The notes under the pieces: generated by a model
Seen by the model: the letters and a program-made list of their open reading frames with translations, nothing else
Databases searched by the model: none
Told to the model about the DNA's origin: nothing
Shown: positions 1-37,354 of the stretch, one piece after another
How positions within the stretch are numbered: the first letter of the stretch is position 1
Layout: each line of letters opens with the position of its first letter
Program-made: the position numbers and the translations under genes
From: a bacterium
GTDB lineage: Bacteria; Patescibacteriota; Minisyncoccia; Phycocordibacterales; UBA6899
Reading direction: 5' to 3'
Length of the DNA stretch: 48,244 bases
Assembly: GCA_021851895.1 (NCBI GenBank)
Contig: JAJZQJ010000003.1
Coordinates: forward strand, 63,431 to 111,674

Positions 1-180
1 GTCACTAAGTCTTTAGCCAGCAGAGCTGTCAAAAGCCTAAGTGCTCGTGACCACGGCTCGGCTACAGCCGCTTCGGCTGGGAAGCCTTCAGCGGCTGGCT
101 TCGCAGCCTCCGCCTTTCGAGTCCCGCACCGGGTCGCAGCGGGTAACAAAAAAGAGCTTGCGCTCTTTTTTGTCCCGCTG
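1..180 (-). repeat. tRNA-Leu-associated structured element (truncated by window edge)
   Basis: Minus strand: hairpin, then TGCGACCCGGTGCGGGACTCGAA (inverted copy of tRNA 3' end), then a GC-rich multi-hairpin core homologous to the tRNA-Ala element (CGAAAGGCGGAGGCYGCGAAGCCRGCCGCTGA; CACGAGCACTTAG...CTTAGTGAC). Confidence 0.8.
146..173 (-). terminator. Symmetric hairpin ACAAAAAAGAGC-GCAA-GCTCTTTTTTGT after tRNA-Leu
   Basis: Perfect inverted repeat with A/T tracts; the identical 28-mer occurs after tRNA-Ala. Confidence 0.8.
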
Positions 181-263
181 TGCCCGGGGCGGGACTCGAA
201 CCCGCACGCTTTTTATGGCGGGAGATTTTAAGTCTCCTGTGGCTACCATTACACCACCCGGAC
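181..263 (-). tRNA. tRNA-Leu (anticodon TAA)
   Basis: Minus strand GTCCGGGTGGTGTAATGG...GACTTAAAATC...GGGTTCGAGTCCCGCCCCGGGCA; acceptor GTCCGGG/CCCGGGC pairs, TTCGA T-loop, anticodon loop with TAA; no encoded CCA. Confidence 0.93.
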
Positions 264-1348: not shown

Positions 1349-1363
1349 AAGATTCAATAAGGT

Positions 1364-1597
1364 GGCACGGGCGGGAATCGGTCACAAGTTACTAAGTCTT
1401 TTGACGCTCTACGAGACGTCAAAAAGCCTAAGTACTCGCGACCCCGACTCGCCGACCGTGCACGCGGCTAGATTTATCACGAGCGAAGCTCGGATAAAAC
1501 AGCGCCGGGTGACGGTACCCGGCTCCGTCTTTCGATTCCCGCCCGTGCACCAAAACAAAGCAAAACAAACGCTTTCGCGTTTGTTTTGTCGTTTTGA
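1364..1597 (-). repeat. tRNA-Cys-associated structured element, distal tandem unit
   Basis: Minus strand: hairpin AAAACAAACGCGAAAGCGTTTGTTTTG; inverted tRNA copy 1533-1548; core; CTTAGTAACTTGTGACCGA; terminal direct copy of the tRNA-Cys 3' end at 1364-1380. Confidence 0.85.
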
Positions 1598-1812
1598 GGC
1601 ACGGGCGGGAATCGGCGTCAGCTCACCGCCGTATATTCGTTCGCTGCGCTCCGAATCTACGGGGTGGCTCCTGCCCGAGCTCGCTCGTCCTCGCGCAAGA
1701 GCGCTGCGGGCGGAGCTCCGCTTTTCGATTCCCGACGAAAGCACCTGATGAAGGTGCTTTCTCCCGTGAAAATCAAAACTCTCGAAGCTGAGCTTCGAGA
1801 GTTTTGATTTTG
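1598..1812 (-). repeat. tRNA-Cys-associated structured element, proximal tandem unit
   Basis: Bounded by direct copies GGCACGGGCGGGAATCG at 1598-1614 and in the tRNA at 1814-1830; short inverted copy CGATTCCCG at 1726-1734; 3' domain 36/44 identical to the tRNA-Tyr element. Confidence 0.83.
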
Positions 1813-1884
1813 AGGCACGGGCGGGAATCGAACCCGCGCATGGCGGTTTTGCAGACCGCAGCGTTACCACTTCGCCACCGTGCC
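1813..1884 (-). tRNA. tRNA-Cys (anticodon GCA)
   Basis: Minus strand GGCACGGTGGCGAAGTGGTAACGCTGCGGTCTGCAAAACCGCCATGCGCGGGTTCGATTCCCGCCCGTGCC. Confidence 0.95.
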
Positions 1885-15648: not shown

Positions 15649-15719
15649 CGGAGTGTAGTATACCGGTAGTATTTACGATTCGGGTTCGTAAGGACCGGGT
15701 TCGATTCCCGGCACTCCGA
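15649..15719 (+). tRNA. tRNA-Pro (anticodon CGG)
   Basis: CGGAGTGTAGTATACCGGTAGTATTTACGATTCGGGTTCGTAAGGACCGGGTTCGATTCCCGGCACTCCGA. Confidence 0.93.
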
Positions 15720-15960
15720 CAGTATTGTTCATTTGCATCGTGTCGGAGTGCCGTGAATCGAACGGATAGGGGCCGGGAAAGGTGTGCCTTGCCCGTGTCG
15801 GAAGGCAGCGAGTCTTCGAGCGTCGGAAACCGTGGGTTTCCGAGGAGCAATGCGGTGCGGGACCCTTTAGGGTGCGCCGCATGCGACGTGAGATGTCCCG
15901 GTGCGCGTGCAAAGTTCGTGAGATACCCCGGACAAGACGCGAAGCGTCTGTATTTTACTC
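15720..15960 (+). repeat. tRNA-Pro-associated GC-rich structured element (divergent type)
   Basis: TGTCGGAGTGCCGTGAATCGAA (15741-15762) is an inverted copy of the tRNA-Pro 3' end; followed by several GC hairpins; no obvious terminal direct copy. Confidence 0.65.
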
Positions 15961-16031
15961 GGGCCTATAGTACAGTGGTAAAACGCTGCATTCGCATTGC
16001 AGAGACGGGGGTTCGATTCCCCCTAGGTCCA
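15961..16031 (+). tRNA. tRNA-Ala (anticodon CGC)
   Basis: GGGCCTATAGTACAGTGGTAAAACGCTGCATTCGCATTGCAGAGACGGGGGTTCGATTCCCCCTAGGTCCA. Confidence 0.94.
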
Positions 16032-16234
16032 CAGCGGTACAAAAAAGAGCGCAAGCTCTTTTTTGTTTTCCGCTGTGCGACCTAGAGGGAATCGAAAGGC
16101 GGAGGCCGCGAAGCCGGCCGCTGAGGTCACGACCGAAGCGGTCGTTGCCGAGCCGGGGTCGCGAGTACTTAGCAAATAAGGAGCGCAGCTCCGCATTTGC
16201 TTAGTAACTTGTGACCGACCCCTAGGTCCACAGC
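16032..16234 (+). repeat. tRNA-Ala-associated structured element
   Basis: Hairpin; GACCTAGAGGGAATCGAA inverted copy (16079-16096); multi-hairpin core; CTTAGTAACTTGTGACCGA; direct copy CCCCTAGGTCCACAGC at 16219-16234 (tRNA copy 16020-16035). Confidence 0.87.
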
Positions 16235-23673: not shown

Positions 23674-23756
23674 GCGTCGGTGGCGGAGCGGTCAATCGCA
23701 ACAGACTGTAAATCTGTCGTCTTCGGGCTACGTAGGTTCGAATCCTACCCGGCGCA
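23674..23756 (+). tRNA. tRNA-Tyr (anticodon GTA)
   Basis: GCGTCGGTGGCGGAGCGG...CAGACTGTAAATCTG, long variable arm, GGTTCGAATCCTACCCGGCGCA. Confidence 0.94.
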
Positions 23757-23995
23757 CAAAGGTACAAAAAAGAGGCTATACGCCTCTTTTTTGTTTACCT
23801 TTGCGACGCCGGATAGGATTCGAAGGACGGAGCCGGGGCTACCGCCGCCCCGGCTGCTGATCTTATCCGGCCAAAGGCCGTGATAGATCCAGCCGGGCGC
23901 GCGGTCGGCGAGTCCTGGCCCTACCTGCACCCCGCATTTTCTGAGCGTAGCGAAAGAAAATACGGAGGTGACAGAGGGGCGAATCCTACCCGGCA
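23757..23995 (+). repeat. tRNA-Tyr-associated structured element
   Basis: Hairpin ACAAAAAAGAGGC...GCCTCTTTTTTGT; inverted copy GACGCCGGATAGGATTCGAA; core; direct copy CGAATCCTACCCGGC at 23980-23994 (tRNA copy 23739-23753). Confidence 0.87.
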
Positions 23996-24029
23996 TTCCC
24001 TGGTTGCGCGGCATTGCGACTTTAGATTC

Positions 24030-34513: not shown

Positions 34514-37354
34514 ATGCAATTCACTGCAAAGATAAACAAAATAGCCATTGGTCTCCTCGTTACGTTGGGACTTTTTGCGCATGCTTCCGCAGCTCAGGCA
34601 AGCACCTCATCGGTGACTTGTAACTCAGCTACGCTTAATGGTCATACATCAACGACGGTGTTTCCCGTTAGTGTTTGGTTTGAGTGGGGAACAAATTCGA
34701 ATACCGTTTCATCGGGAGGTGGTACAAAGACCGCAGTGCAAGTGCTGAATGCGAATGCTTCATTCAGTCAGCCGCTTACGGGTCTCTCGCAGAACACTAC
34801 ATATTACTACCGTGCGATGGCACAGGATCATATCGGTCCTCTTACTGGTGCAGTCATCTCGTTCACCACACCATCTTGTGGAGGTAATGGAGGTGGCTCA
34901 ACAGTCGCTCCTTCAGCGACAACGAACAGTCCATCAAACATCGATAATTACTCGGCAACGCTGAATGGTTTTGTAGATCCGAAGGGATCGAATGATACCG
35001 TCCGCTGGTTCGAGTATGGATCAGGATACTATGGTTTTGATAGTTCAACTGCGCAAGTGAATGTAAATGGATCGGGAAACGTATCAGCGTATATCTCGAA
35101 CCTCTCTCCAAACACCAGTTATCGTTACCGTATCGTGGCTCGCAATAGCCAGGGTACGAGCTATGGTGCTACGATCAGCTTTAGGACCACTACGGGTGGT
35201 TCGAATGGTCAGGCACCATCAGCAACAACACGTGCAGCGTCGAATATCGACAATTACTCTGCAACCTTGAATGGTTATGTTGATACTAATGGTACGTCTG
35301 ATACTGCTCGTTGGTTCGAGTGGGGGACGAGCCAGAACAACATGTATCGTACAACGACGCATGTGAATATCGGCTATGCAGGTGATGCGTCAGCATATAT
35401 CTCAAGTCTCAATCAGAATACGACGTATTACTATCGTGTCGTCGCACAGAATTCGACCGGAACGAGCTATGGTCAGGTCCTGTCATTCACAACCAATGGA
35501 AGCAACAATAACAATGGACAGCTCCCGACGGTATCAACCAACAGTGCGTCGAGTATCGACAACTATTCTGCAACCTTAAATGGTTATGTGGATACCAATG
35601 GAACGAATGACACGACTCGATGGTTTGAATACGGTACGAGTCAGGGCAACCTCTATAACTCAACCTCGCGCGTTAATATTAGCTACGCGGGCAATGTGTC
35701 TGCGTATGTCTCAAATCTGTCTTCGAACACGACCTATTATTATCGTGTCGCTGCGCAGAATAGCCAGGGTACAGTCTATGGACAAGTATTGTCATTCACT
35801 ACCTATAACGGCGGTAATGGTAATCAGAACCTCACGGTCACAACGAATGCCGCATATAATATCGATAATTATTCTGCAACCCTTGCAGGATATGTGAATA
35901 CGAATGGTTCGAACTATGCTACTCGTTGGTTTGAATACGGAACGAGTTACTCAAACTTGAATAATTCAACCTCACGCATCGATGTCGGATATTCAGGTGA
36001 TGCTACGGCGTATATCTCGAATCTTTCATCAAACACGACCTATTACTTCCGTCTCGTTGCACAGAATAGTCAGGGAACGGTCTACGGTCAGACACTTTCA
36101 TTCACAACGAACGGTAACGGTGGAGGCGGTGGTGGATATTCGAATCTTCCACTTGTAACGACGCGCTCAGCAAGCAACGTCTTCTCGGCCGTCGCAACGA
36201 TAAACGGATATGTTGATACAAACGGTTCGGGTAATACCTACGGTTGGTTTGAGTGGGGTACGAATCAGAATCTTTCGCAGTCGACTTCACGTACATACAT
36301 AAGCAATGGTGGTACAAACATCGCTTCGAGCTTGACCGGTCTTTCACAGAATACAACGTACTACTATCGCGCTGTTGCACAGAACGATAGCGGAACCGTG
36401 CGCGGTTCTATTCTTACGTTCACAACTATGAATACGGGGAATACTGATACAACCGGTGCTCCAAGTGCGATCACAACGCTTCCTACGCAGATCACCAGCA
36501 CAAGTGCAATGTTGAATTCACTTGTCGTTAGTGGTGGAACAGAGCCAGTGCGTGCTTGGTTCGAGTGGGGAACGACCCAATCGCTCAGTCATAGTACTGC
36601 GTCTGTAAATCTTGGTAGCGTGCCATCAGTGCGTCATGCACAGACCATCTATGGCCTTACATCGGGTACGACATACTATTTCCGGGTTGTTGCAGAAAAT
36701 GATCACGGAAAGAGTTACGGCATCATAAGAAGCTTCGTCGCACGATATCCTGTTGTCGTGACTCCAAAGCCAGTAACACCGAAGACTACGGTAAAGGTGA
36801 TCGAAAAGCCGGTATATGTCCATGCAGAGGGCATAAACAGCCTTGTCATGCTCACGATCACTGGCGGTGCTGATACGATTTCAAAGGGTGAGCATCGTAC
36901 ATACCATGTAACATGGAAGAACGATAGCACACAGAACCTTACGAATGTCGTCCTTCGCGTTCTTGTCCCACAGACAATGAACTTCGAAAGTGCTGATTCA
37001 GGAACATTCTCAAAGGTAGACAATACACTTACTATCGAACTCGACCGCCTCAATGTAGGTGATTCGGGCGAGACGAATCTCGTTCTTAATGGTGGTGATG
37101 GTCTTCGCATTGGCGACCTTGTTGTCACAACTGCAAACATCGTCTATACCGATGAGTCGAGCGTTCAGGGAAATGCACTCGCATACACCACGCAGCGCGT
37201 TGTCGATGGTGGTGGGGCAGTGCTGGGAGCAAGTGTTGGAGCAGCAGCATTCCCAATGATGCTTCTCGGATGGCTTCTCCTCCTCATCCTCCTCGTGATA
37301 TTGATCATACTTTCAATGCATCTCTATCGTAAGCTTAAGGAAGGAACAAATTAA
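34514..37354 (+). CDS. Large surface protein with about seven fibronectin-III-like repeats, C-terminal TM
   Basis: Signal peptide; repeats SNIDNYSATLNGYVDTNGT..RWFEWGTSQ..NTTYYYRVVAQNS.GTSYGQVLSFTT; DUF11-like domain; C-terminal TM plus basic tail. Confidence 0.88.
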   Translation: MQFTAKINKIAIGLLVTLGLFAHASAAQASTSSVTCNSATLNGHTSTTVFPVSVWFEWGTNSNTVSSGGGTKTAVQVLNANASFSQPLTGLSQNTTYYYRAMAQDHIGPLTGAVISFTTPSCGGNGGGSTVAPSATTNSPSNIDNYSATLNGFVDPKGSNDTVRWFEYGSGYYGFDSSTAQVNVNGSGNVSAYISNLSPNTSYRYRIVARNSQGTSYGATISFRTTTGGSNGQAPSATTRAASNIDNYSATLNGYVDTNGTSDTARWFEWGTSQNNMYRTTTHVNIGYAGDASAYISSLNQNTTYYYRVVAQNSTGTSYGQVLSFTTNGSNNNNGQLPTVSTNSASSIDNYSATLNGYVDTNGTNDTTRWFEYGTSQGNLYNSTSRVNISYAGNVSAYVSNLSSNTTYYYRVAAQNSQGTVYGQVLSFTTYNGGNGNQNLTVTTNAAYNIDNYSATLAGYVNTNGSNYATRWFEYGTSYSNLNNSTSRIDVGYSGDATAYISNLSSNTTYYFRLVAQNSQGTVYGQTLSFTTNGNGGGGGGYSNLPLVTTRSASNVFSAVATINGYVDTNGSGNTYGWFEWGTNQNLSQSTSRTYISNGGTNIASSLTGLSQNTTYYYRAVAQNDSGTVRGSILTFTTMNTGNTDTTGAPSAITTLPTQITSTSAMLNSLVVSGGTEPVRAWFEWGTTQSLSHSTASVNLGSVPSVRHAQTIYGLTSGTTYYFRVVAENDHGKSYGIIRSFVARYPVVVTPKPVTPKTTVKVIEKPVYVHAEGINSLVMLTITGGADTISKGEHRTYHVTWKNDSTQNLTNVVLRVLVPQTMNFESADSGTFSKVDNTLTIELDRLNVGDSGETNLVLNGGDGLRIGDLVVTTANIVYTDESSVQGNALAYTTQRVVDGGGAVLGASVGAAAFPMMLLGWLLLLILLVILIILSMHLYRKLKEGTN

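What the first reader, a model, noticed from the sequence alone, without database searches (positions are those of the whole stretch)
16097..16218. Compensatory stem changes and modular reassortment among element cores
Stems change on both sides: GGCT..AGCC (Leu) vs GGCC..GGCC (Ala); CAGCCG-AAG-CGGCTG (Leu) vs CGACCG-AAG-CGGTCG (Ala); CGAGC-TTC-GCTCG (Cys distal) vs CGGCC-AAA-GGCCG (Tyr). 5' domains: type a in Leu and Ala, type b in Cys distal and Tyr, a third in Cys proximal. 3' domains: type I (CGGGGTCGCGAGTACTTAG...CTTAGTAACTTGTGACCGA) in Ala and Cys distal, with both 19-mers identical, and a variant in Leu. Type II is in Cys proximal and Tyr. The a/b and I/II types are therefore mixed, as in recombining modular elements. 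Stem conservation argues for selection on a folded RNA or single-stranded DNA.
Basis: seen in the sequence. Interest (0 to 1): 0.85.

Follow-up and report, generated by a model that had tools for sequence, protein, structure and literature searches.

The report
Zigzag hairpin elements at gene ends
Next to most tRNA genes of this tiny bacterium, and at the ends of other conserved genes across the Patescibacteria, sit short non-coding hairpin cassettes flanked by one upside-down and one forward copy of that gene's own end, which look mobile although no gene that could move them was found.

Summary
Aligned copies covary strongly: 36 of 38 pairs in 97 distinct type c cores, score 0.231 against 0.076±0.003 in shuffles. 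5' modules a/b/d occur with 3' modules I/II/III in all nine combinations. Orthologous tRNAs of two congeneric species often carry different cores.

The unit is a zigzag: gene end (A), usually a terminator hairpin, an inverted copy of the gene end (A'), a structured core, then a direct copy (A2). It follows most tRNAs and tmRNA, and occurs at rpsI, rplL, rpmG, hppA, lepA and other gene ends, apparently only in Patescibacteria. A' matches its own tRNA and tracks species differences 18:2.

Stem mismatches lack the strong G·U bias of RNA (44:24, against 30:0 in tRNA stems), which favours a DNA-level constraint. In protein genes A2 differs from A mainly by synonymous changes (86:22), which points to horizontal exchange. 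No RT, IS110 or TnpB was found, and usually one Xer-type recombinase.

Best reading: non-coding modular mobile elements propagated as DNA by recombination. The mechanism is unproven.

The parts
15961..16032 (+). tRNA-Ala(cgc), host gene; its end A is 16012-16032
16033..16077 (+). terminator-like hairpin between A and A'
   Evidence: sequence; fold
16078..16096 (+). A': inverted copy of the tRNA-Ala end
16097..16154 (+). core 5' module, type a
16155..16216 (+). core 3' module, type I
16217..16233 (+). A2: direct copy of the tRNA-Ala end
15649..15720 (+). tRNA-Pro(cgg), host gene; its end A is 15699-15720
15742..15763 (+). A' of the Pro element
15769..15901 (+). type c core after tRNA-Pro, with a short remnant of A2 at its end
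   Evidence: R2 match G000:C5:79200-79323
180..263 (-). tRNA-Leu(taa), host gene
116..137 (-). A' of the Leu element
55..115 (-). Leu element, 5' module type a
1..54 (-). Leu element, 3' module type I, cut by the window edge; further tandem copies lie beyond it
1812..1884 (-). tRNA-Cys(gca), host gene with two tandem elements
1724..1737 (-). A' of the proximal Cys element (core-proximal part; the rest of A' is interrupted by an extra hairpin)
1615..1723 (-). core of the proximal Cys element, 3' module type IV
1590..1614 (-). A2 of the proximal Cys element
1531..1550 (-). A' of the distal Cys element
1446..1530 (-). distal Cys element, 5' module type b
1380..1445 (-). distal Cys element, 3' module type I
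1361..1380 (-). A2 of the distal Cys element
23674..23757 (+). tRNA-Tyr(gta), host gene
23804..23824 (+). A' of the Tyr element
23825..23914 (+). Tyr element, 5' module type b
23915..23979 (+). Tyr element, 3' module type II
23980..23999 (+). A2 of the Tyr element

Best explanation
These are short non-coding modular mobile elements of Patescibacteria (core about 60-300 nt) that live at the ends of conserved genes. Each copy is a zigzag: gene end A, a turn (usually a terminator hairpin), inverted copy A', structured core, direct copy A2. Shown by the data: the architecture, the covariation, the module swapping, the taxonomic range, the gene-specific arms and the signs of horizontal exchange. 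Inferred: they are propagated as DNA by the host's own replication and recombination. Foreign DNA carrying the element recombines at the homologous gene end, leaving a displaced or mosaic A2; cores are exchanged between copies through the T-loop motif shared by all tRNAs; A' is kept identical to the local gene end by hairpin-directed copying (template switching) at the DNA level; the conserved hairpins act in single-stranded DNA, as the template-switch structure or as a site for an unidentified protein. I give the mobile-modular-element part about 0.9 and this enzyme-free DNA mechanism about 0.45.
For: Zigzag after about 35 of 45 distinct tRNAs and at protein-gene ends. A' cognate matches 28/42 and 30/41 against 24/1722 and 26/1640 non-cognate. 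A' tracks species-specific tRNA changes 18:2. Core type differs at orthologous tRNAs; an occupied/empty pair at Thr-ggt shows an insertion with one extra copy of the tRNA end, the old flank following A2. All nine module combinations. Mismatches in A:A' symmetric, 17:17, and core stems 44:24 against 30:0 in tRNA stems. Protein-gene A against A2: 86 synonymous, 22 nonsynonymous; hppA copies near-identical over the first 46 nt then diverged. No RT, IS110 or TnpB, and no excess of tyrosine recombinases.
Against: A weak G.T excess in core stems (44:24, p = 0.02) fits an RNA role too. Homologous exchange explains spread to the same gene in other species but not how a new target first gains both A' and A2. 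Conservation of one core across the phylum suggests that something recognises it, and no such factor was found. Absence of enzymes was tested for four families only.
Confidence: 0.45

Rival explanations
1. A guide-plus-scaffold system: A' is a programmable guide abutting a conserved scaffold, and an unidentified enzyme acting in trans uses it to place the element at the matching gene end. Different targets carry different guides on the same scaffold.
For: Same core with many different A' arms, each matching its own site; in the hppA copies A' reaches about 5 nt upstream of the point where A2 begins, so it spans the insertion point; A' is kept better than A2.
Against: No IS110, TnpB/Cas12f or RT in element-rich genomes; A:A' mismatches show no RNA wobble bias; the guide would also target the resident intact gene end.
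Confidence: 0.2
2. Miniature integrative elements moved in trans by a tyrosine recombinase (for example the single Xer), with the gene end as attachment site; A-terminator-A' would be a folded attachment site usable as single-stranded DNA, as in integron cassettes or CTX phage.
For: A/A2 behave like attL/attR at classical targets (tRNA T-loop, tmRNA, rpsI, rplL, rpmG; that these are classical is own knowledge); A2 is followed by the flank of the empty site; every genome searched has a tyrosine recombinase.
Against: Only one such recombinase in most genomes, with no excess in element-rich ones; one recombinase would have to serve dozens of unrelated sites; no autonomous relative at the tRNA sites of this genome; no integrase gene in the units.
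Confidence: 0.15
3. Domesticated RNA elements: 3' trailers that fold in the transcript and control termination, processing or stability of abundant RNAs.
For: They follow highly expressed genes; strong covariation; GNRA-type loops on the tRNA strand (sequence); a weak G.T excess.
Against: Core types turn over between sister species; mismatches are nearly symmetric; elements at 5' gene ends lie antisense to the gene.
Confidence: 0.1
4. Elements enriched by biased DNA uptake during natural transformation, like uptake sequences, with no mover at all.
For: No mobility enzyme found, location at the most conserved genes, mosaic A2.
Against: Known uptake sequences are short duplex motifs (own knowledge), whereas here structure is kept while sequence varies; it gives no account of A'.
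Confidence: 0.05

Closest known systems
MITEs and small bacterial palindromic repeats (REP/RAYT, Rickettsia palindromic elements, NEMIS)
   Same: Short, non-coding, hairpin-forming, many copies, no gene of their own.
   Different: Here the terminal arms are not element-specific inverted repeats but copies of each host gene's end; no fixed short target duplication; the only RAYT has other hairpins.
Integrative elements at tRNA and conserved gene ends (tyrosine recombinase islands)
   Same: The gene end is regenerated and a displaced copy lies distally; same target genes; synonymous recoding of the gene end.
   Different: No integrase or cargo, unit of a few hundred bp, extra inverted copy A', dozens of different sites in one genome.
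Inverted triplication by template switching (ODIRA-type DUP-INV-DUP)
   Same: Order A - inverted A - A, with turns at short inverted repeats.
   Different: A conserved core family is inserted at the second turn and recurs at unrelated loci across a phylum.
Guide-scaffold RNAs of IscB/TnpB (OMEGA) and IS110 bridge RNAs
   Same: A site-specific arm joined to a conserved structured scaffold in non-coding DNA.
   Different: No cognate protein in the genomes searched; no RNA wobble signature in the arm.
Integron attC sites
   Same: Structure kept more than sequence, hairpins with unpaired bases, tandem arrays.
   Different: No integron integrase identified, no cassette genes, arms copied from the neighbouring gene.

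Membership tests
MITE | element-specific terminal inverted repeats shared by all copies | tested here: not met
   arms A' and A2 match the host gene and differ between copies
MITE | short target duplication of fixed length | tested here: not met
   direct repeats run from about 9 to more than 50 nt
REP/RAYT | hairpin shared with the flanks of the resident RAYT gene | tested here: not met
   RAYT at C4:41048 is flanked by AATGGGGTC(T/A)GACCCCATTT hairpins
tyrosine-recombinase integrative element | direct repeat of the gene end at both borders | tested here: met
   A and A2
tyrosine-recombinase integrative element | integrase gene in the element or in an autonomous relative | tested here: not met
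   no integrase inside units; one PF00589 match in G000 and G001; no large island at the tRNA sites of G000
IS110 bridge RNA | DEDD recombinase PF01548 | tested here: not met
   0 of 16 genomes
OMEGA RNA / TnpB | TnpB-type protein PF07282 | tested here: not met
   0 of 16 genomes; IscB itself was not searched
retron / group II intron | reverse transcriptase PF00078 | tested here: not met
   none in G000
known RNA family (Rfam 15, incl. introns and ribozymes) | match at or above the gathering score | tested here: not met
   only tRNAs reach it
integron attC | recombination of the folded strand by IntI | not testable with these tools
   needs an assay; no IntI-specific model was run
inverted triplication by template switching | A - inverted A - A order at short inverted repeats | tested here: met
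   37 of 75 type c loci of other genera show both repeats above shuffles, 65 at least one; the inserted core is not explained by it

The most novel reading that the evidence does not exclude
A new class of programmable mobile element: a conserved structured core carrying a site-specific arm (A') matched to the target gene end, placed at many different conserved genes by an unknown machinery that rewrites the arm at each move.
Probability: 0.2. Interest if true: 0.95.

Novelty: categorically new. Interest (0 to 1): 0.8.

Why it matters
If right, a phylum with very small genomes hosts dozens of mobile units per genome that carry no gene of their own, whose arms are rewritten to match each target gene, and which pass between species at the ends of the most conserved genes. 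That would be either a gene-free way of moving DNA by copying and recombination, or the trace of an unknown programmable integration system. It would also mean that the flanks of tRNA and ribosomal protein genes in these bacteria cannot be read as ordinary intergenic DNA.

Tried and rejected
- Rfam at gathering and permissive thresholds: only tRNAs at or above a gathering score.
- Type a exact pattern in genome and viral contigs: none. The type c pattern worked in genomes, not in viral contigs.
- Reverse transcriptase, IS110 and TnpB: none. Tyrosine recombinase: no excess in element-rich genomes.
- RAYT as mover: rejected, its own flanking hairpins are different.
- Self-splicing intron with duplicated exon: considered because A2 of protein genes keeps the peptide. 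Rejected because A2 of tRNAs is often cut to about 9 nt and no catalytic core is recognised.
- Simple local tandem duplication: rejected for protein genes, because A and A2 differ mainly by synonymous changes.
- Literature searches found no description (open-access library only).
A malformed annotated-region request. The codon script stopped early at a locus without the pattern, so the totals are my sum over the 15 sites printed; the p-value assumed 25% synonymous.

Full report
Setting. The window is G000:C5:63431-111674 of a 1.10 Mb genome in 16 contigs with 46 tRNA matches. Its genes are ordinary (IF-2, ClpB, Dus, alanine racemase). The relatives are Patescibacteria: one genome of the same order (G054) appears to be the Candidatus Yonathbacteria record behind L235, and one of the same family (G007) the Parcubacteria group record GW2011_GWA2_47_7 behind L270 (same coordinates and scores).

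The observation. Every quoted string is in the window. The hairpin CAGCCG-AAG-CGGCTG / CGACCG-AAG-CGGTCG pairs in 83 of 84 cells over 14 type a copies, and one column pair uses all four Watson-Crick types. Rfam has no family for it.

Anatomy. After the tRNA comes a terminator-like hairpin, then an inverted copy (A') of the tRNA 3' end from acceptor to T-loop, then the core, then a direct copy (A2) starting at about the same T-loop point. A, terminator and A' form one palindrome of roughly 35-40 bp. In G000 about 35 of 45 distinct tRNAs have A'; so do tmRNA, an intron-containing tRNA and the rpsI 3' end. Random window positions have such an inverted 12-mer in 36 of 20000 trials. With no gaps allowed, 28 of 42 tRNAs have an A' with at most 4 mismatches in 19, against 24 of 1722 non-cognate pairs; in the sister species G001 it is 30 of 41 against 26 of 1640. 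Tandem units occur at Cys, Val-tac and Leu-taa.

Covariation. Type a: 16 of 32 consensus pairs have compensatory changes. Type c: 21 of 38 in 11 copies. With 97 distinct type c copies from many genera, 36 of 38 pairs have changes on both sides, 95.9% of cells pair, and the covariation score is 0.231 against 0.076±0.003 in shuffles and at most 0.061 in slid controls. The alignment was fitted to the model and 80 loci were picked by an exact 25-mer in helix 1, so the weight lies on helices 2-4.

RNA or DNA. In real RNA stems G·U is tolerated and A·C is not: tRNA acceptor stems of these genomes give 30 to 0. Core stems give 44 G·T to 24 A·C beside 2087 Watson-Crick pairs, and A:A' gives 17 to 17. 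The pairing therefore seems to be kept mainly at the level of DNA, by single-stranded DNA folding or by hairpin-directed copying. A weak G·T excess (p = 0.02) remains.

Modules and turnover. 5' types a, b, d combine with 3' types I, II, III in all nine ways (a few elements between neighbouring tRNAs are counted twice). Near-identical 3' modules sit behind different 5' modules and the reverse. A type III 3' module is nested inside type c cores at C13:119.3 kb and C12:9.9 kb. Between G000 and G001 orthologous tRNAs usually both carry an element but often of another type: Ala-tgc a/b, Ala-cgc a/c, Arg-gcg b/c, Asp a/b, Trp a/b, Val-gac b/a, Val-cac a/d. Gln-ttg is occupied only in G001. Thr-ggt is occupied only in G000, where the sequence after A2 continues like the empty site of G001. 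A' follows the tRNA of its own species at 18 of 20 informative cells.

Range. In 60 relatives R2 (type c) matches 32 genomes and R1 (type a) 32. In a sample of 294 genomes of the phylum R2 matches 18. The exact 25-mer of the first type c hairpin is in 91 stretches (80 listed); those with a named lineage are all Patescibacteria groups, and a few titles say only 'bacterium'. None is in IMG/VR viral contigs.

Other gene ends. Of 75 testable type c loci, 48 have the direct and 54 the inverted repeat above shuffles, 65 at least one, 37 both. Sites include the 3' ends of rpsI, rplL, rpmG and hppA and the 5' ends of lepA, fusA, a glycosyltransferase gene, a murD-like gene and a ribonuclease H gene (genes named from the encoded peptides by own knowledge). 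A' usually fits A better than A2. A and A2 of protein genes differ by 86 synonymous and 22 nonsynonymous codons over the 15 sites printed, where about a quarter synonymous would be expected of random changes. In three hppA cases the first 46 nt are nearly identical (0, 1 and 3 differences) and the rest diverged (20/54, 11/29, 16/50). That is what horizontal exchange with a crossover inside the gene end would leave, not a local duplication.

Machinery. No reverse transcriptase in G000; no IS110 and no TnpB/Cas12f in 16 genomes including element-rich ones. One tyrosine recombinase in each element-rich genome except G014 and G019 (two), no more than in element-free ones. The one Y1 transposase has its own different hairpins. 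No large autonomous relative was seen at the tRNA sites of this genome.

Verdict. These are mobile, modular, non-coding elements with gene-matched arms. The best-supported mechanism is propagation as DNA by replication and recombination, with A' kept in step by hairpin-directed copying and cores swapped through the shared T-loop motif. How new targets gain both A' and A2, and why one core is conserved across the phylum, remain unexplained, so a guide-like or recombinase-driven system stays open.

Noticed in passing
L012 and L035 (after tRNA-Ile-gat and tRNA-Arg-cct); G000:C6:33751-33990 and C6:40875-41220; C1:263-346; C5:646-729; C13:119876-119985: A second, unrelated repeat (my type e, about 110 nt, two hairpins, consensus ..CATCAACTCA..) inserted after TA-like sites, often in tandem and inside partial tRNA copies.
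   Followed up: partly
G000:C4:41000-41750: A RAYT-like Y1 transposase gene flanked by AATGGGGTC(T/A)GACCCCATTT hairpins.
   Followed up: partly
G000:C13:51480-51700 and C13:62050-62270: Type III-like 3' modules inserted in partial copies of tRNA-Pro and tRNA-Gly that lie upstream of the intact tRNAs.
   Followed up: no
G000 ends of C2, C4, C12, C13, C14: An extra domain of about 150 nt (GTGAGCTCTCGCTCATGGG...GTACCGTTCATGTAAT) within some type c cores is nearly identical between copies, and contigs break in it.
   Followed up: no
G000:C4:21950-22070: A tRNA-like 3' half follows a stretch that looks like the end of a group I intron (TGATGATATAGTCC); it too carries a type a element.
   Followed up: no
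tRNA genes of G000, e.g. window 15961-16034: Most tRNA genes do not encode CCA; the discriminator is usually followed by CA, and the sequence then runs straight into the terminator hairpin.
   Followed up: no
window 34904-36108: Four direct repeats of about 284 nt (60-71% identical) inside the ORF 34514-37354, a repeated protein domain.
   Followed up: no
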